A stretch of 64,000 nt of DNA, from positions 434,001 to 498,000 of the forward strand of contig BPUI01000001.1 of assembly GCA_019973575.1 (NCBI GenBank), read 5' to 3'. Position 1 is the first letter of the stretch. Each line of letters starts with the position of its first letter. Positions 11,378-21,792 of the stretch are shown here, in pieces. The position numbers and the translations under genes were made by a program. Below the pieces are notes generated by a model. It had not been told where the DNA came from, ran no database searches, and was given only the letters and a program-made list of their open reading frames with translations. The DNA comes from Gemmatimonadetes bacterium T265. Lineage in GTDB: Bacteria > Gemmatimonadota > Gemmatimonadetes > Gemmatimonadales > Gemmatimonadaceae.

Positions 11378-11394
11378 GATGCTGTTGGCGAATT
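11378..11394 (+). repeat. IS1182-like left terminal inverted repeat
   Basis: GATGCTGTTGGCGAATT, exactly complementary to 13189-13205. It lies 48 bases upstream of the transposase GTG. Confidence 0.9.
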
Positions 11395-11442
11395 GGCCCG
11401 GGGTTCGCGGCGGGTAGGTTCCCCCCCGCCGCGAGGTGCCGC

Positions 11443-13181
11443 GTGTCGCTGCAGCCTGGTTCGATCCCGCCCGTCCCCGAGCAGACCGCGGCCGTCGCGC
11501 GCCGCGCCTTCCGCCGCCCGCCGCTCGCGGTGCGGCTACGCGACGAGTTCGGGGCGCTGTACGCGGACGCCGACTGCGCCGCGCTCTTCCCCGTGCGGGG
11601 CCAGCCCGCGCTCCCGCCGTGGCGGCTCGCGCTCGTCACCGTGCTGCAGTTCCTCGTGGGCCTCACGGACCGCCAGGCGGCCGACGCGGTCCGGGCCCGG
11701 ATCGATTGGAAGTACGCGCCGGGGCTGGAGCTGACCGACCCCGGCTTCGACTACCGCGTGTTAAGCGAGTGCCGCGCGCGGCTGGTCACCGGCAGCGCCG
11801 AGCAGGTGCTGCTCGACCGGCTACTCGACCATGCGGCCGGGCGGGGGCTGGTGAAGGCGCGGACCACGCAGCGCACGGACAGCACACACGTGCTGGCCGC
11901 CGTGCGCACCCGCAACCGCCTGGAGCTCGTCGGCGAGTCGGTCCGCGCCGCGCGCAACACGCTGGCCGCGGCCGCACCGAGGTGGCTTCGGGCCGTCGCG
12001 CCGCCCGAGTGGCACGCGCGGTACGACCACCGCGTCGAGGAGGCGCGGATGCCCTCGACGGGGCCCGCGCGCGCGCCTCCTGCGCGCGTTGGGCGAGGAC
12101 GGCGCCGCGCTGCTGGCCGCGGTCGACGCGTCGGACGCCCCACCCGCGCTGCGTGCACTGCCGCCCGTCGCCGCGCTCCGCCACTGGCGCGCTACTATGC
12201 GCGCGAGCCCGCGGGCGGCGCGCCGTCCGGGGACGACGCGGCGCCGGGCGACGACGGCGGCGCGGCCGGCGACCTACGGCCGCGCGCCAAGGGCGAGCTG
12301 AAGCAGGCGCCCCGCGCCGTGGAGTCGCCCTACGAGGCGGACGCCCGCTACGGGTAGGCTCGTCCTGCAGTCGGCCCGGCGCGGTGTGGGTCGGCGACAT
12401 GGTCCACGCGAGCGGCGGAGCCGTGAGCGAGACGTGCGCGCCGGGCCTGCCACGGCTCGTGACGCACGTCGACACCACGCCGGCGGGCGTGTACGAGGCG
12501 ACGCGGGTGGACGCGATCCACGCGGCGCTCGCCGCCAAGGGCCTCCTGCCGTCCGAGCACTTCGCCGACGGCGCCTACCTCAGCGCGGCGCTGCTCGTGC
12601 GGAGCAAGCGCGACCACGGCGTCTCGCTCCGGGGGCCGACGAAGACCGGCGGCGCGTGGCAGGGCCGCGACGGCGGCTTCACCCCCGCCGCCTTCCGGAT
12701 CGCCTGGCGCCGGAAGCGGGTCACGTGCCCGGCCGGGCGCGCGAGCAACACGTGGGGTGCGTACGACGGGTCGGCCGGCGACCCGCGCCAGGCGCGCGCC
12801 CCGTACCTCACGGTGCGCGTCGCCCCGAGCGTCCGCGGCGCCTGCGCGCTCCAGGCCCGCTGCGTGCGCGCGCCCCGCCGCGGGCGGCAGCTCCTGCTGC
12901 ATCCGCGGGCCGAGCAGCAGGCGCTGGCCGCGGCGCGCGCCCGCCACGCCTCGCCCGCGGGGCGCCGCGCGTACGCGGTGCGCTCGGGCATCGCGGGCAC
13001 CGTCTCGCAGGCGGTGCAGGCCCTCGGCCTGCGCCCGGCGCGGTACCAGGGGCTCGCGAAGACGCGCCTGCAGGGCGTCGCGACCGCCGCGGCGCTCAAC
13101 GCCGCCCGGCTCGACGCGCGGCTCGCCGGCCGGCCGCTCGCCCCGACGCGCACCTCGCACTTCGCCCGGCTCGCGGCCTAA
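11443..13181 (+). pseudogene. IS1182-family transposase with frameshifts and altered DDE glutamate
   Basis: GTG at 11443 starts MSLQPGSIPPVPEQT, the classic IS1182 N-terminus. It is followed by the InsH-type domain (GQPALPPWRLALVTVLQFL, DRQAADAVRARIDWKYAPG) and the first catalytic Asp in QRTDSTHVLAAVR. Continuity needs frame changes near 12065, 12195 and 12355, where an in-frame TAG ends the first frame. The C-terminal half then runs to 13181 with the second Asp in HFADGAYLSAALL. The expected catalytic Glu of the conserved IEGT motif is replaced by Ala (GIAGTVSQAVQALGLRPARY), a one-base GAG to GCG change. With several frame breaks and a lost catalytic residue it cannot work. The TAA stop lies inside a GTTAGGC motif. 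Confidence 0.9.
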
Positions 13182-13188
13182 CGAACGG

Positions 13189-13205
13189 AATTCGCCAACA
13201 GCATC
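13189..13205 (-). repeat. IS1182-like right terminal inverted repeat
   Basis: AATTCGCCAACAGCATC on the plus strand, exact reverse complement of the left repeat. It starts seven bases after the transposase stop codon. Confidence 0.9.
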
Positions 13206-13310: not shown

Positions 13311-14105
13311 CTACACCGCCGCGAACGGCTCGCCCGCCGGCACGAAGTCGACCGGGACCTCGGTAAGGAACCCGCGCAGCCACTCGGCCACCTCGCGCAT
13401 CCCGTAGTCCTCGGACTGCAGGTGGCCGAGGATCACGAAGCCCTTCGGCCGCCCCAGCGCCGCGGCGTCGAGCGCGTACTCGGCGTTACCGCCGGCCTCC
13501 GGCTGCTCGCCGCCGATCGAGACGTCGAGCTCCGCGCCGAGCGGCGGCGCGGACCAGCCGAGGCCGAGCCCGACGCGCGTGACCGGTGTGCCCGGGTCGC
13601 CGACGACGCGGATCGCGCGCCCGCCGAGCCGGCGCGCGAAGTCGCGCGCGAGTGCGCCTAACGTGGTCGGGGGCACGACGAAGACCCGCGCATCCGCCGG
13701 CGACGCGTACGGCGTGAGGCCGAGCGCGCGCGCCGAGCCGACGAAGAGCGGGTCCGGGCGCAGCGCGTGCGCGTGGTCGTGGAAGCGCCAGACCACCAAG
13801 TCGTGCTCCGCGATGAACCGCTGCTTGGCCGCGTACACCGGGTCGTCGGCGAGGGGCGCCGTCTCGTCGAGGTGGTTGTAGAACGTCGGCTCGTGGGTGA
13901 CGACAAAGTTGCGCCCGGCCGCGGCGGCGCGCCGCAGCACGTCGAGCGTCGCCATCCCGGTGGTCGCGACGCCGCGCACCGGCGCGTCGGGGTTGCCGGC
14001 CTTGAAGGTGTCGACGGTTTCGGCGCGCCACGTGATTCCCTGTTCCGCGAGCCGGCCGCGGATGCGCGCGACGATCTCTCGCGCGGTCAGCATACTCGTC
14101 ATCAT
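13311..14105 (-). CDS. NIF3-like protein, metal-site residues retained
   Basis: 264 aa; the first of two adjacent ATG codons at 14105 overlaps the TGA of the upstream paralogue (ATGA). The N-terminal half has TFKAGNPDAPVRGVATTGMAT, and a metal-site segment FVVTHEPTFYNHLDETAPL. The C-terminal half carries VILGHLQSEDYGMREVAEWL, matching the GH...E ligands of the NIF3/YbgI (DUF34) fold. NIF3 proteins are hexameric, bind two metal ions and have been linked to nucleotide or metal-cofactor repair, but the biochemical role remains open. This copy has no export signal, whereas its upstream neighbour does. Confidence 0.85.
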   Translation of the reverse strand: MMTSMLTAREIVARIRGRLAEQGITWRAETVDTFKAGNPDAPVRGVATTGMATLDVLRRAAAAGRNFVVTHEPTFYNHLDETAPLADDPVYAAKQRFIAEHDLVVWRFHDHAHALRPDPLFVGSARALGLTPYASPADARVFVVPPTTLGALARDFARRLGGRAIRVVGDPGTPVTRVGLGLGWSAPPLGAELDVSIGGEQPEAGGNAEYALDAAALGRPKGFVILGHLQSEDYGMREVAEWLRGFLTEVPVDFVPAGEPFAAV

Positions 14106-15040
14106 GCCGCGGGGCTCCAGTACGGGTCCGCGACCGCGAACGGCCGCACCGGAACCTCGGTGACTAACGTGCGCAGCCACTCGGCGCACGCGCGCATCCC
14201 CGGCTCCTCCGAGATTACGCGGCCGAGGGCGACCATGCCCGCGAGCCGGCCGGCCGCGACGGCGTCGTACGCGTACTCGACCGCCTCCCACTCGCGCGGC
14301 TCGCCGGCGAGGATCAGGTCCACGCCGGGCGCGCGCCGCACCGTGTCGCGCCACTCCACGGTGCCGGGGCTCACGAGCACGCGGCGGACCGGCGCGCGCG
14401 CGTCGCCGATCACGCGGAGGCCACCGCGCGCGCCGAGCCGCGCGCGGGCGAGCGCGACGACGTCGCCGACCGTGGTGGCGGGGACGTCGTAGGTTCGGTC
14501 GTCGCTGCCCTGCTCGGTCCACCCCATCGCGGCGGCGAGCGCGCGCGCCGTCGCGTCGGGCGTCCGCGCGCGCCAGTGGTCCGCGAAGCGGAAGACGACC
14601 AGGCGCCGCTCGTCGATGAGCGCGCGCTTGGCGAGGTAGACCGGATCGTTCGCCCGGGCGCCCGAGGCGTCGTCCGCCGCACCGTCGTGCGCCCCGTAAA
14701 ACGTCGGCTCGACCGTCACGACGAAGTTGTGCCCGGCGTCGGCGGCCCGGCGCAGGACGTCGACCGTCGCCATCGCCGCCGTCGCGATCCCGGTGACGCT
14801 GGTGCTCGGGTCGCCCGCCTTGAAGCCGTCGACGGTGGAAGGCTGCCACGGCACGCCCACGCCGGCGCGGATCCGGTCCGCGACCTCGCGCGCGGTCAGC
14901 GCCCGCCGCGCGGCGCCCCGCTGAAGGGCCGCGGACGCCACCGCCGGCGCCCCGGCAAGCAGGGCGGCCGCACGCAAGAACGCGCGGCGCGACGGGCCGT
15001 GCGCGTCGGGCGCCAGCGGGTCCCGGTCGTCGCCCATCAT
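14102..15040 (-). CDS. NIF3-like paralogue, Tat-exported, metal-site residues lost
   Basis: 312 aa. The N-terminus is a Tat signal (PSRRAFLRAAALLAGAPAVA). The body aligns end to end with the downstream NIF3 gene (TVDGFKAGDPSTSVTGIAT, VPVRPFAVADPYW). The metal-binding histidines are replaced: THEPTFYNH becomes TVEPTFYGA, and ILGHLQSE becomes ALGRVISE. This copy is therefore an exported, probably non-metal-binding derivative of a duplication. Overlaps of the ATGA type with both neighbours place it in the middle of a three-gene operon with the GH5 enzyme. Its function is unknown. Confidence 0.85.
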   Translation of the reverse strand: MMGDDRDPLAPDAHGPSRRAFLRAAALLAGAPAVASAALQRGAARRALTAREVADRIRAGVGVPWQPSTVDGFKAGDPSTSVTGIATAAMATVDVLRRAADAGHNFVVTVEPTFYGAHDGAADDASGARANDPVYLAKRALIDERRLVVFRFADHWRARTPDATARALAAAMGWTEQGSDDRTYDVPATTVGDVVALARARLGARGGLRVIGDARAPVRRVLVSPGTVEWRDTVRRAPGVDLILAGEPREWEAVEYAYDAVAAGRLAGMVALGRVISEEPGMRACAEWLRTLVTEVPVRPFAVADPYWSPAA

Positions 15041-16815
15041 CGCCCCGCGTCCGACTCGAACTCGATCGCGCGGAGGCTCGTCCCGTCCCGCTCGGAGCGG
15101 AGGACGAGCGTGTTGCGGCCCGGTAGCAGGGTCACGGCGACGGCCCCGCCGGCAGGACCGTTAGGCACCGCGGCGCCGTTCACGGCCACCGCGACGCCGG
15201 CGGGCGCGCCCGCCGCGTCGCGCACGCGGAGCCAGTACGCGCCGCCGGGCGACGTCACGGTGTACCGCAGCCACTCCCCCGCGCCTAACGACCGCACGTA
15301 CGGCGCGCCGCCGGCGTCGCGCGCCAGGTCGACGGGATCGTTGCGGTAGGCCCCGCCGGGGTTGTAGCGCGCGGGCGGCCCGCCGTCGCTCACGTGGTAG
15401 TCGGCCGGCGTGCGGCTGAAGTAGGCGACGCCGTTGCGCCCCAGGTCGAAGTCGGCCGCGGGCACTCGGCCGCCCGCCGCGCCGACCGCGTGCTCGCCGT
15501 AGGGCGCGCCGGACACGTCCCCGGGCGCCTGCCGGAGCGCGTAGGCCACGTCCGGGTGTCGCTCGTTGTGCTCGAAGCGCACGTCGGACGTCGCCAGGCG
15601 CATGAGCGCGGCGCGCGCCTCCTCCGGGGACGGCCGCGGGCCCTTGCCGAGCCAGTAGTCGGTCACGCGCTGGAACCCCGGGTTGGGCCGGATCTGGAGC
15701 GGGCTGCTGAAACCGAACTTCTTGAGCGTCCACCACGCCCAGCCGATCCCGTCAGCTTCGACGGTCGCGACCATCCCGGCGAACCAGTCGTTCGAGTTCT
15801 CGCCCGATTCGCCGAGCCAGACGGGGAGCCCGGTGCGCGTGCGCAGGGCGAGCACGTCCCGGATTGCCCCCTGCCCCGGCCGCACCCAGTACCGGTGGAA
15901 GCTGAGCGCCATGTTAGCGTCCCAGTCGGGGACGACCCCGGCGTAGTTGTTCCCCCAGCAGTTGCCCTCGATGATGAGCAGGTGGTTGGGGTCCACCTGG
16001 CGGATCGCGGCGGCGGTGCGCTTGTAGAGCGCGACGAGCGGCGCCTGCTCCTTCACCTTGCACCCGTGCTCGTTGCCGGAGCCGTCGAGGTCCCAGTTGG
16101 GCTCGTTCAGCAGGTCGTAGCCCGCGACGTGCGGCTCGTCCTTGTAGCGCCGGGCGATTTCGGCCCAGAGCGCGACCATCTTGTCCTGGTTCGCGCTGCT
16201 CTCCCAGAGGCTCGGCTTCGCGGGGTCGCGGTCCGCGATCGGCAGGTCGGTGCCCTGCCCGCCGGGCGCCGCATGGAGGTCGAGGATCAGGTACATATTG
16301 TTCGCCTTGCACCACGCGAGCAGCGTGTCGATCCGCCGGAAGCCGGCCTCCTTCCACGTATTCCGCCCCTGCACCGGCTCGTCCTCTACCGACGGCGTCA
16401 GCAGCTCGTAGTGCATCGGCAGGCGCACCGAGTTGAACCCCCATGCGGCAAGCGCGTCGATGTCGGCCTTGGTGACGAAGTTGTCGAGCCAGGCAGCGTA
16501 GAACTGCTCGGTCGCCACAGGGCCGATGAGCTCGGCCATCTTCCGCCGCATGACATGCTGCGTCAGCCCGCCGGCGTTCAGCATGTAGCCTTCCTGGAGC
16601 ATCCAGCCGCCGAGGCCCATCCCGCGCAGGACGACGGCCCGGCCGGCGCCGTCGACGATCTGCCCGTCGTGGGCGTGCAGGAAGTCGGCGGGCGCGGCGG
16701 GTCCGTCGTGCTCCGCCCGCCTTGACGCGCCCTGCCCCGCTGCAGTGATCGCGGTCGCCGTGATTGCGGTCAGGCACGCGGCGGTCCACGCGCGCGCTTT
16801 GCGTCCTCGGGTCAT
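15037..16815 (-). CDS. Glycoside hydrolase family 5 (cellulase-type) with C-terminal CBM-like domain
   Basis: 592 aa with a secretion signal (AACLTAITATAITAAGQG). The (beta/alpha)8 core starts at GQIVDGAGRAVVLRGMGLGG. The acid/base Glu is about residue 238 in DLLNEPNWDL, and the nucleophile Glu is about residue 336 in PVWLGESGENSND. SFHRYWV and GWAWWTLKKFG are further GH5 landmarks. The last 130 residues (SLGAGEWLRYTVTSPGGAYWLRVRD region) form a beta-rich carbohydrate-binding-like domain of CBM6/35 type. It probably cleaves a beta-linked glucan or related polysaccharide outside the cell. It is the first gene of an operon with two NIF3-like genes. Confidence 0.9.
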   Translation of the reverse strand: MTRGRKARAWTAACLTAITATAITAAGQGASRRAEHDGPAAPADFLHAHDGQIVDGAGRAVVLRGMGLGGWMLQEGYMLNAGGLTQHVMRRKMAELIGPVATEQFYAAWLDNFVTKADIDALAAWGFNSVRLPMHYELLTPSVEDEPVQGRNTWKEAGFRRIDTLLAWCKANNMYLILDLHAAPGGQGTDLPIADRDPAKPSLWESSANQDKMVALWAEIARRYKDEPHVAGYDLLNEPNWDLDGSGNEHGCKVKEQAPLVALYKRTAAAIRQVDPNHLLIIEGNCWGNNYAGVVPDWDANMALSFHRYWVRPGQGAIRDVLALRTRTGLPVWLGESGENSNDWFAGMVATVEADGIGWAWWTLKKFGFSSPLQIRPNPGFQRVTDYWLGKGPRPSPEEARAALMRLATSDVRFEHNERHPDVAYALRQAPGDVSGAPYGEHAVGAAGGRVPAADFDLGRNGVAYFSRTPADYHVSDGGPPARYNPGGAYRNDPVDLARDAGGAPYVRSLGAGEWLRYTVTSPGGAYWLRVRDAAGAPAGVAVAVNGAAVPNGPAGGAVAVTLLPGRNTLVLRSERDGTSLRAIEFESDAGR

Positions 16816-16939: not shown

Positions 16940-18766
<1,827 letters not shown>

Positions 18767-18771
18767 AAGCG

Positions 18772-20163
18772 TTACCGGGTTGATGATGCCAGCGCGTCCA
18801 ACGGCTCCCGCGACCGCGCCACGAGCGCGCGCGCGTCGGCCTCGGTCGGCCCCTCCGCGATCACGCGCACGATCGGCTCGGTGCCGCTCGGCCGCACGTG
18901 CACCCAGCGGTCGGGCCAGGCGAGCCGGAGCCCGTCCTGCGTGTCGCGCGTCGCGTCGGGGAACGCGGCGCCCAACGCGGCATACACCGCGTCGAGCGGC
19001 GCGTTCGGCCGGTCGAGCTTGTCCTTGACGATCGCGTACCGCGGATGGTCAGCGACGACCGCCGACAGCGGCCGCCCCTCCTCCGCCAAGAGCTGCAGCA
19101 CGAGCGCGGCGCCGAGCGGGGCGTCGCGCCCGAGGTGCAGCGCGGGGAGGATCACCCCGCCGTTCCCCTCGCCGCCGACTACCGCGCCCTCGTCGCGCAT
19201 CCGCACGGCCACGTTCACCTCGCCCACCGGCGCGCGCACCACGCGGCTCCCGGCCGCCTCGGCTACGTCGTCCACCACCCGGCTCGTCGACAGGTTCGTC
19301 ACGACCACGCCCGGCGTGTGCGCCAGCACCAGCCGCGCCGCGAGCGCGAGCGTGTAGTCCTCGCCGATCGCGCGCCCGGTCTCGTCGACGAGCGCGAGCC
19401 GGTCGACGTCGGGGTCGACCGCGAAGCCCACGTCCACGCCCGCCGCGCGGGTCAGCGCCTCCAGCTCATCGAGGTTCTCCGCGACCGGCTCGGGCGGTCG
19501 CGGAAAGTGGCCGTCTGGCTCCATGTTGACCGCCGTGACCTCGCAGCCGAGCCGCTCCAGCAGGTAGGGCATCACGACCGCCCCCGCACCGCGGCACGCG
19601 TCGAGCACGACCTTGAACCGCCGCGCGCGGATCCGCTCCACGTCCACGTAGGGCAGCGCGAGCACCTGCTCGACGTGCCGCCGCGCGGCCTCCGCGTCCG
19701 GCACCACGGAGCCGAGCTGGTCCCACGTCGCGTACACGGTCCCTTTCTCCATCCCCGCCCGCATCTCCGCCCCCTCGGCCGCGTCGAGGAACAGCCCCGA
19801 CGCGCCGATCAGCTTCAGCGCATTCCACTCGATCGGGTTGTGGCTCGCCGAGATCATCAGCCCGCCCGCGGCGTGGTGGTGCTCGACGGCGAGCTGACAC
19901 GTGGGCGTGGTCGTCATCCCGAGGTCGATCACGCGCGCGCCCACGGACTCGAGCGCGGAGACGACGACGCGGTGGAAGAGCGGCCCCGACACGCGGCTGT
20001 CCCGCCCGACGACGATCGTCCGCGCGCCGCCCCGCGCGGCGTGGCGCGCCGTCGCCCACGCGCCGAACGCCGCCGCGAAGCGCGCGACGACCTCGGGCGT
20101 GAGTCCCTGCCCAACGCGGCCGCGGACGCCGGACACGGAAACCATCAAACCTTCGTACGCCAT
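18772..20163 (-). CDS. glmM: Phosphoglucosamine mutase
   Basis: 463 aa from the ATG at 20163 (MAYEGLMVSVSGVRG). A second ATG seven codons in gives MVSVSGVRGRVG and is also plausible. The phosphoserine loop is MISASHNPIEWNALK, the metal loop DPDVDRLALVD, the sugar loop GGEGNGGVI, and the phosphate-binding loop RPSGTEPIVRV near the C-terminus. This order is diagnostic of alpha-D-phosphohexomutases. Adjacency to glmS supports glucosamine-6-P to glucosamine-1-P conversion rather than phosphomannomutase. Confidence 0.94.
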   Translation of the reverse strand: MAYEGLMVSVSGVRGRVGQGLTPEVVARFAAAFGAWATARHAARGGARTIVVGRDSRVSGPLFHRVVVSALESVGARVIDLGMTTTPTCQLAVEHHHAAGGLMISASHNPIEWNALKLIGASGLFLDAAEGAEMRAGMEKGTVYATWDQLGSVVPDAEAARRHVEQVLALPYVDVERIRARRFKVVLDACRGAGAVVMPYLLERLGCEVTAVNMEPDGHFPRPPEPVAENLDELEALTRAAGVDVGFAVDPDVDRLALVDETGRAIGEDYTLALAARLVLAHTPGVVVTNLSTSRVVDDVAEAAGSRVVRAPVGEVNVAVRMRDEGAVVGGEGNGGVILPALHLGRDAPLGAALVLQLLAEEGRPLSAVVADHPRYAIVKDKLDRPNAPLDAVYAALGAAFPDATRDTQDGLRLAWPDRWVHVRPSGTEPIVRVIAEGPTEADARALVARSREPLDALASSTR

Positions 20164-20310
20164 CGGTGCGGGATGCGAGAAATCGGGGCCGGCCGGGGGG
20201 CCACAGACCGGTGAGGCCGCGGACCGGGAGAAGGGTATGCGCGCCGGGTCGCCGGCGCAGTCTCGCAGCGCGGCGGCTACCTTGGCGCGACACTCGCCCA
20301 CCCGCGTCCG

Positions 20311-21792
20311 ATGCCCGACCCCCTCGCCGTCGTCCCCTACGCCCTCGCCGCTGCCGGCGGCCGCGTCGATGCCGCGGGCAGTAGTGACTCCGCAGGCGTC
20401 CAGCACTTCGACGCCGGGCAGCTCACCGCCGCCGGCCTCACGCTGCTCCGCCGCTCGGCGCCGCTCGTGCGCGCGCTCGCCGGCCGGCGCGCGGCGATCC
20501 TGCTCCCCACGTCGCCGGCCTTCCTCGTCGCGCTCGCCGCCTGCGAGGGCCGCGGCGCGGTGCTCGTCAATCCGCTCGCCGCGCCGCCCGAGATCGCCGA
20601 CCAGCTCGCCGACGCGGACGTCGGCGCGGTGTTCACGATCGGCGCGCTCGCCGCGCGGCTCCCCGCCGGCACGCCGCACGTGCTGCTCGACGCGGTCCCG
20701 GCCGCCGCGCGCGTCGTCGCCGCCGACGGTACCACGCGCGACCTCGACCTCGCCGCGCACGCGGGCGACGCGCTCGCGCTCGAGGGCTCGCGCGGCGCGG
20801 AGGGGCGCGACGAGGAGGCCGCCGTCGTCTACACCTCGGCGATGCGCGGGCGCTCGTTAGGCGCGGTCCTCACGCACCGCAACTTGCTCTCCAACGCGCG
20901 CGCCACGGTCGAGGCGGGCGGGCTCCGCGCCGACGACCACGCGCTCGCCGTCCTCCCCTTCTCGCACCTCTTCGGGCTCGTCGTCGCGGGACTCGCGCCG
21001 CTGCTCGCGGGCGCGCGCGTGACGACGATGGCGCGCTTCAACCCGATCACGGCCGCCGACCTGATCGCGCGGGGCGGCGTGACCTTCCTCGTCGGCGTGC
21101 CGGCCGTCTTTGCCGCGCTCGTGCAGGCGGCCGAGCGGCGCGGCGGGCTCGGTGCGAACGCGCTCCGGACGTGCATCTGCGGCGGCGCGCCGCTCCCGGT
21201 CGCGCTGCAGGAGCGCTGGCACGCGGTCACGGGCGCGGAGCTGCGCCAGGGCTACGGCCTCACCGAGGCGGGCCCAGTCTGCCTCTTCAACCGCGTCGAC
21301 CGCCCCAACCGGCGCGGCACGTTAGGCGTCCCCTTCCCGGGCGTCGCGGTCGCGGTGCGCGACGAGCAGACCGGCGCGCCGTGCGCGACCGGCGCGCGCG
21401 GCGAGATCTGCGTCTGCGGCCCGAACGTCGGCCCGGGGTACGTGAGCGGCGGCGCGGACGGGCTCGGGCGCTGGCCGGACGTCCCTCGCGACTCCTGGCT
21501 CCGCACCGGCGACCTCGGCTCGGCCGACGCCGACGGGTACGTGACCTTCCACGGCGTGTGCAAGCCGATGTTCACGCGCAACGGCTTCAACGTCTACCCG
21601 CGCGAGCTGGAGCGCGTCGTGGGCGCGATGCCGGGCGTTAGGCACGTCACGGTCCGCGCCGTCCCCGACCCCGCGCGCGAGCACGACATCGCGCTCGACG
21701 TCCAGGGCGGCGTCACGCCCGACGCGGTGAAGGCGTGGTGCGCGGCGCGGCTCAGCGCCTACAAGCAGCCGAGCGAGATCACGGTCCGCTGA
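20311..21792 (+). CDS. ANL-superfamily (acyl-CoA synthetase-like) protein with degenerate ATP loop
   Basis: 493 aa. The fold of AMP-forming acyl-CoA synthetases is clear: LPFSHLFGLVVAGLAPLLAGA, CICGGAPLPVAL, QGYGLTEAGPVC, SWLRTGDLGSADADGYVTF and FTRNGFNVYPRELE. However, the A3 phosphate loop (normally TSGTTGxPKG) reads YTSAMRGRSLGAVLTH at about residues 172-187. The protein also ends just after SAYKQPSEITVR, without the A10 PxxxGK lysine. Adenylation is therefore doubtful, or it uses an unusual site. It is transcribed alone, divergent from glmM. Confidence 0.82.
   Translation: MPDPLAVVPYALAAAGGRVDAAGSSDSAGVQHFDAGQLTAAGLTLLRRSAPLVRALAGRRAAILLPTSPAFLVALAACEGRGAVLVNPLAAPPEIADQLADADVGAVFTIGALAARLPAGTPHVLLDAVPAAARVVAADGTTRDLDLAAHAGDALALEGSRGAEGRDEEAAVVYTSAMRGRSLGAVLTHRNLLSNARATVEAGGLRADDHALAVLPFSHLFGLVVAGLAPLLAGARVTTMARFNPITAADLIARGGVTFLVGVPAVFAALVQAAERRGGLGANALRTCICGGAPLPVALQERWHAVTGAELRQGYGLTEAGPVCLFNRVDRPNRRGTLGVPFPGVAVAVRDEQTGAPCATGARGEICVCGPNVGPGYVSGGADGLGRWPDVPRDSWLRTGDLGSADADGYVTFHGVCKPMFTRNGFNVYPRELERVVGAMPGVRHVTVRAVPDPAREHDIALDVQGGVTPDAVKAWCAARLSAYKQPSEITVR

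What the first reader, a model, noticed from the sequence alone, without database searches (positions are those of the whole stretch)
13311..15040. Tandem NIF3-like duplicates, one exported and stripped of metal ligands
The upstream copy has a Tat signal and has lost the metal-site His residues (THEPTFYNH to TVEPTFYGA, ILGHLQSE to ALGRVISE), while the downstream copy keeps them and has no signal. Both are in one operon with a GH5 glycosidase. Pairing of NIF3 duplicates with a secreted glycosidase is unexpected and suggests a new role, perhaps in carbohydrate handling.
Basis: partly seen in the sequence, partly recalled or inferred. Interest (0 to 1): 0.55.

Follow-up and report, generated by a model that had tools for sequence, protein, structure and literature searches.

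The report
Paired NIF3 proteins with divided residues
Two neighbouring, overlapping genes encode sister NIF3-family proteins, one carrying an export signal but no metal-binding histidines and the other the histidines but no signal; the same pair recurs in Acidobacteria, which suggests the two are made and exported together as one mixed complex.

Summary
UP (14102-15040, minus) has a Tat signal and lacks the metal-site histidines; DN (13311-14105, minus) keeps them and has no signal. The genes overlap (ATGA). Both belong to the NIF3 branch of XynX, a Geobacillus xylan-cluster protein.

The pair is not strain-specific: 15 further intact pairs lie in genomes reached through Acidobacteria. All UPs form one clade (100/99), all DNs another (99/97). 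Of 33 columns conserved in 89 single-copy relatives, window UP departs at exactly four, all His (H71, H109, H113, H228); window DN at exactly W130, W205, E206, which all 16 UPs keep. Both are under purifying selection. A second tandem type has the signal on the intact copy.

Best explanation (inferred): an obligate hetero-oligomer of enzyme and pseudo-enzyme sharing an active-site cleft, exported whole by Tat on one signal. Complex, export, metal and substrate are not shown.

The GH5 link looks local: no other locus held has it, and among 395 Gemmatimonadota genomes only the window's has the pair. A carbohydrate role is plausible from XynX but unproven.

The parts
14102..15040 (-). UP: NIF3-family protein, 312 aa, Tat signal, metal-site His 71, 109, 113, 228 (DN numbering) replaced by V, A, R, R
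   Evidence: model pLDDT 89.0, best match XynX Z 30.8
13311..14105 (-). DN: NIF3-family protein, 264 aa, no signal, His residues kept, W130, W205 and E206 replaced by L, G, G
   Evidence: model pLDDT 94.6, best match XynX Z 30.8
14102..14105 (-). ATGA overlap of the UP stop and the first DN start codon (a second ATG follows in frame)
   Evidence: the same kind of overlap (-4, -1 or +1) in 15 of 15 other type-1 pairs
15037..16815 (-). GH5 glycosidase with a signal-like N-terminus, 4-base overlap with UP; local member of the operon, not conserved with the pair
   Evidence: no homologue at other loci held

Best explanation
UP and DN are the two subunits of one obligate hetero-oligomer that descends from a single-gene, exported, homomeric NIF3 enzyme. 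After duplication the conserved residues were divided: DN keeps the metal-site residues (H71, E72, H109/D110/H113, H228, E232) and UP keeps a Trp/Glu set (W130, W205, E206) that in single-copy relatives sits in the same chain. The mixed complex rebuilds the active-site cleft. DN folds and takes its metal in the cytoplasm, binds UP (their synthesis is translationally coupled), and the folded complex crosses the membrane on the single Tat signal of UP, so that the signal-less, metal-bearing subunit hitch-hikes. Shown by sequence: overlapping tandem, one signal per pair, reciprocal residue loss, purifying selection on both, strict co-occurrence, two clades that include the window. Inferred: the physical complex, co-export, metal binding, the shared cleft. 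Unknown: the reaction; action on plant-polymer-derived compounds is a guess from XynX.
For: 15 other intact pairs with the same order; stop/start spacing of -4, -1 or +1 in 15 of 15; UP clade 100/99 and DN clade 99/97, window included; His columns 113 and 228 lost in 16 of 16 UPs and kept in 17 of 17 DNs, W205/E206 lost in 17 of 17 DNs and kept in 16 of 16 UPs; the window shows exactly these changes; dN/dS 0.04-0.22 in UP and 0.02-0.08 in DN; no orphan DN in 399 genomes; exactly one Tat signal in each of 22 intact diverged pairs, with the signal on the other partner in type 2; TatC in the genome; Tat hitchhiking of signal-less partners is known (PMC4273604; PMC10924467); the family is a trimer of dimers with a cleft said to be formed on dimerisation.
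Against: No complex, export or metal was tested. Tat in the pairs is inherited from Tat-bearing single copies, so its uniform use is weak evidence. XynX, the closest solved relative, is reported as a regulator acting on a promoter, so a signal-less member can work alone in the cytoplasm. Disjoint loss sets alone are expected by chance about 43% of the time (my arithmetic). H71 is kept in 4 and H109 in 2 of 16 UPs. The W205/E206 columns lie at a small insertion in DNs, so their alignment is less sure.
Confidence: 0.5

Rival explanations
1. Two separately located proteins: DN is a cytosolic enzyme or XynX-like regulator, while UP is exported alone as a metal-free binding protein or sensor; they share an operon but form no complex.
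For: DN lacks a signal and XynX, apparently signal-less, is reported to regulate xynA; two-compartment operons are common (general knowledge).
Against: DN descends from exported single copies; it lost residues conserved in 89 singles that UP keeps, which a self-sufficient cytosolic enzyme need not do; stop/start overlap in all pairs; the second type has the His-less copy in the signal-less role, which needs a second story.
Confidence: 0.3
2. UP has simply decayed after duplication and only DN works.
For: Loss of the four His; one UP of the class sample is frame-shifted (G700).
Against: UP dN/dS 0.04-0.22; Arg at 228 in 16 of 16 and 29 of the other 29 conserved columns kept in at least half of UPs; no DN without a UP in 399 genomes.
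Confidence: 0.05
3. A dedicated carbohydrate-handling unit with GH5: the three genes work together on a GH5 product.
For: 4-base overlaps of all three genes here; XynX in a xylan cluster next to a GDSL esterase; some other pairs lie near GH43, esterase, PfkB, SMP-30 or sugar-isomerase-like genes.
Against: No GH5 homologue at any other family locus held; the only pair among 395 Gemmatimonadota genomes is this one; neighbours heterogeneous and no base rate measured.
Confidence: 0.15

Closest known systems
XynX of Geobacillus T-6 (PDB 9g9u), NIF3 family
   Same: Best sequence hit for DN (E 7e-41) and best structural match of both models (Z 30.8); shares the H71-E72, H109-D110, H113, H228, E232 pattern; carbohydrate setting
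   Different: Single gene without a signal in the printed stretch; described as a regulator of xynA; no divided pair
Canonical NIF3/DUF34 (YbgI, YqfO, SA1388)
   Same: Same fold (Z 19-25) and Pfam family
   Different: Second His of the HH motif is Glu here and the Asp region is rearranged; not within the TIGR00486 cut-off; cytoplasmic homohexamers
Tat hitchhiker complexes HybO/HybC and PaoABC
   Same: One subunit with a Tat signal, catalytic partner without (PMC4273604 abstract and introduction)
   Different: Partners there are not paralogues; co-export here is inferred only
Mitochondrial processing peptidase alpha/beta and bacterial M16B pairs (recalled, from no call)
   Same: Paralogous subunits, one stripped of metal ligands and contributing other active-site residues
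   Different: Unrelated family; named only as an analogy of working

Membership tests
DUF34/NIF3 (PF01784) | Profile score above Pfam's gathering cut-off | tested here: met
   35.7 (DN) and 29.1 (UP) bits against 23.4
DUF34/NIF3 (PF01784) | NIF3 fold | tested here: met
   XynX Z 30.8, 1.8-1.9 A over 253-258 residues, then other NIF3 entries Z 19-25
DUF34/NIF3 (PF01784) | Conserved dinuclear metal residues (five His, one Glu, one Asp) | tested here: inconclusive
   DN has a changed set, HE..HDxxH..HxxxE; UP lacks the four His; no coordinates or metal were examined
DUF34/NIF3 (PF01784) | Toroidal hexamer (trimer of dimers) | not testable with these tools
   Only single chains were predicted
YbgI/SA1388 equivalog (TIGR00486) | Score above the NCBIfam cut-off of 130.55 | tested here: not met
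   DN 23.5 bits, UP no match
XynX branch | Clear sequence kinship and the HE..HD..H..HxxxE pattern | tested here: met
   Kinship; pattern kept in DN, lost in UP
XynX branch | Regulation of a glycosidase gene | not testable with these tools
   Needs experiment; literature statement for XynX only
Tat hitchhiker pair | Twin-arginine signal on one partner only | tested here: met
   UP SRRAF, DN none; the same split in 16 of 16 intact type-1 pairs, window included; judged by motif, not by SignalP
Tat hitchhiker pair | Physical complex and signal-dependent co-export | not testable with these tools
   Needs co-purification and fractionation

The most novel reading that the evidence does not exclude
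A hetero-oligomeric, Tat-exported NIF3 enzyme whose active site is divided between two sister subunits, one supplying the metal and the other the Trp/Glu side and the only export signal. The split may have evolved twice with the signal on opposite partners: in type 1 on the metal-less copy, in type 2 on the metal-bearing copy.
Probability: 0.4. Interest if true: 0.72.

Novelty: new variant of a known kind. Interest (0 to 1): 0.58.

Why it matters
NIF3/DUF34 proteins are found across life and have no agreed function. A pair in which evolution has separated the metal residues from other conserved residues shows which residues a partner can supply, and gives a handle on the reaction. If DN is carried out on UP's signal, it is a clean Tat hitchhiker between paralogues. 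The exported branch also places part of the family at the cell envelope, as relatives of the xylan-linked XynX.

Tried and rejected
GH5 as part of a conserved unit: phmmer of the GH5 against all ORFs of the loci held found only the window's own gene, there and in overlapping loci of the same place. A constant operon partner for single copies: 43 chosen same-strand upstream neighbours gave 60 Pfam families, the commonest being acyltransferase, 7 of 43 (71 upstream neighbours were located, 52 of them on the same strand, and 43 were given). A constant partner for type-1 pairs: 53 chosen neighbours (66 located) gave 102 Pfam families, the commonest being CarboxypepD_reg/TonB-type barrels (7), ABC (3) and Gfo/Idh/MocA (3). 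For type 2, 29 neighbours were located and 23 aligned, but only 9 were scanned. The ten proteins and those were picked by eye. Decay of UP: disfavoured by dN/dS. Tat as independent evidence for hitchhiking: dropped, because neighbouring singles in the tree are Tat-bearing too. Two origins of the His-less copies: favoured by the trees, but one common clade of UP and type-2 His-less copies is not rejected (AU p 0.167), nor is UP plus DN as one clade (p 0.075).

Rows dropped before counts: both pieces of L077 (broken single) and one of two L163 fragments; L163_1393 and L167_251 (broken partners) besides; near-identical rows for the first tree (141 to 123); the second tree has 70 rows, with singles chosen by hand and L166 and L120 left out; six distant rows (L011-L016) served as outgroup and were left out.

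Literature: no paper holds '9g9u' or both 'NIF3' and 'twin-arginine'; 'NIF3' with 'glycoside hydrolase' gave two papers, seen in listing only; 'Nif3-like dinuclear metal center' gave four, seen in listing only. A mixed-term search listed nothing of use. This covers open-licence PMC only.

Full report
What is there. On the minus strand three genes follow each other with 4-base overlaps: a GH5 glycosidase with a signal-like N-terminus (15037-16815), UP (14102-15040) and DN (13311-14105). UP and DN are 49% identical and both pass the Pfam DUF34_NIF3 cut-off, but neither reaches the YbgI equivalog cut-off. The genome also has a strong NIF3 match and another divergent one elsewhere, so the pair is an addition. 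UP begins with a twin-arginine signal, DN directly with the domain.

Which branch. The closest solved structure by sequence is 9g9u (E 7e-41), titled the structure of XynX, a NIF3 family protein from Geobacillus proteiniphilus T-6. Predicted models of DN (pLDDT 94.6) and UP (89.0) both match it best (Z 30.8; 1.8 A over 253 and 1.9 A over 258 residues), followed mostly by canonical NIF3 entries at Z 19-25. XynX is listed as negatively regulating xynA (PMC8469502, passages); another paper says that it binds the xynA promoter (PMC8670212, passages); its gene is divergent from xynA in one relative (PMC5053077, passage) and lies in a xylan cluster next to a GDSL esterase gene in another (PMC4593210, passage). 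The primary paper of 2014 is not held. So a NIF3 protein near a glycosidase has a precedent.

How common. With a profile of the family, 10 of 395 Gemmatimonadota genomes have a member at E <= 1e-20, and only the window's genome has two. Three of the others (G050, G115, G311) carry single copies with His intact and signal-like N-termini. A scan of named genomes found 352 relatives, of which the best 80 were kept, largely Acidobacteria. In the class of one of these genomes, 92 of 399 genomes have a member at E <= 1e-20.

The pair recurs. Five of the 80 loci (L018, L025, L035, L047, L067) and ten more from the genome searches hold the same two-gene unit: first a Tat-signal copy without the metal histidines, then a signal-less intact copy. 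In the 399-genome sample this is 13 intact pairs in 12 genomes, plus one with a frame-shifted first gene. The space between the genes is -4, -1 or +1 bases in 15 of 15. All 14 DN-type hits of about 400 bits or more in that sample lie beside a UP, one of them the frame-shifted one, so no orphan was seen. In a 70-row maximum-likelihood tree the 16 UPs, window included, form one clade (100/99) and the 17 DNs another (99/97). The window pair is thus kin of the other pairs and not a private duplication.

Which residues were divided. In 89 single-copy relatives 33 columns are conserved at 97% or more. They include exactly four His: 71, 109, 113 and 228. Across UPs these four and no others fall below half: H71 is kept in 4 of 16, H109 in 2, H113 in 0 and H228 in 0, with Arg in all 16; E72, D110 and E232 are kept in 15 of 16. 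Across DNs all four His are kept in 17 of 17, but W205 and E206 in 0 of 17, W130 and P73 in 2, F75 in 4 and L243 in 8; UPs keep the first five of these in 16 of 16 and L243 in 15 of 16. The window is a clean case: UP differs only at the four His, DN only at W130, W205 and E206. Purifying selection acts on both (UP dN/dS 0.04-0.22, DN 0.02-0.08 in six comparisons; a seventh had saturated dS). Disjoint losses alone are not improbable (about 43% for sets of 4 and 6 in 33, my arithmetic); the weight lies on strict retention in the partner and on the His-only loss.

Caution on the ligands. In the profile alignment to E. coli YbgI, H71 falls on the first His of HH, E72 on the second, and H228/E232 on HxxxE. 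Which of H109, D110 and H113 replaces the canonical Asp is not settled by sequence. No coordinates were inspected, so 'metal site' for this branch is inferred from the family.

A second tandem type. Seven other loci of the 399-genome sample (L164-L170) hold a tandem in which the His-less copy has no signal and the intact copy has the Tat signal; in six the intact copy is complete, in L167 it lacks its first part. So in 22 intact diverged pairs (16 type 1 with the window, 6 type 2) exactly one partner carries a signal, and that signal is of Tat type. This is less independent than it looks: the pairs nest among Tat-bearing singles, while of 87 singles 58 look Sec-type, 25 Tat-type and 4 were unscored by a crude rule. 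The trees put UP and the type-2 His-less copies apart, but a single origin is not rejected (AU p 0.167).

Mechanism. The simplest single rule for both types is a hetero-oligomer exported whole by Tat on one signal, as described for HybO/HybC and PaoABC (PMC4273604, abstract and start of the introduction) and for heterodimers in general (PMC10924467, abstract). The DUF34 hexamer is a trimer of dimers with active sites facing the channel (PMC8469502 section 3.2), and section 3.3 speaks of a part after the C-terminal (T/S)G(E/D) motif in the cleft formed on dimerisation, for eukaryotic members. W205 and E206 lie just after the GE motif here. That makes a shared cleft plausible: UP would supply the Trp/Glu side, DN the metal. 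The complex, the export, the metal and the reaction are all untested.

GH5 and carbohydrate. The GH5 has no homologue at any other locus held. Some pairs lie near GH43, esterase, GDSL esterase, PfkB, SMP-30, sugar-isomerase-like or DUF1349 genes (picked by eye), others do not, and no base rate was measured. The carbohydrate link therefore rests mainly on XynX.

Verdict. A real, conserved and selected two-gene module with divided residues: a new variant within the NIF3 family. The reading as a complex exported on one signal is the best guess, at about one in two.

Noticed in passing
window 11378-13205: An IS-like element with 17-base perfect terminal inverted repeats (11378-11394 / 13189-13205) and transposase domains DUF772 and DDE_Tnp_1_6 in different frames, so the transposase looks frame-shifted; it ends about 105 bases downstream of the DN stop.
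   Followed up: partly
window 16940-20760: Genes that look like glmS (16940-18766, minus) and a phosphoglucosamine mutase (within 18772-20760, minus) lie directly upstream of the GH5 (named by eye). A review lists GlmS as a putative partner of the E. coli NIF3 protein YbgI; probably coincidence, as other pairs do not show it.
   Followed up: no
L002 1432-2337 (own genome, near C1:2689000): A further divergent NIF3 homologue whose Pfam match covers only profile positions 92-241, on the same strand just downstream of what looks like trpF (by eye).
   Followed up: no
L164-L170: A second kind of NIF3 tandem: the His-less copy without a signal comes first and a Tat-signal copy with the His second. 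Two of these loci (L164, L165) sit between an alpha/beta hydrolase or its look-alike and a CE1-like esterase and PfkB kinase.
   Followed up: partly
L092 4729-6789: A young-looking tandem in which both copies keep all residues and both have Tat signals: what an undivided duplicate looks like.
   Followed up: no
L011-L016: A distant sister family in Gemmatimonadota genomes with THEPT[FY]..H, RCHDxWD and EHGC[ST]E or NHxC[ST]E-like motifs, some with Tat-like signals.
   Followed up: no
G401, contigs C72 and C28 (L047, L153): One genome holds two separate type-1 pairs.
   Followed up: no
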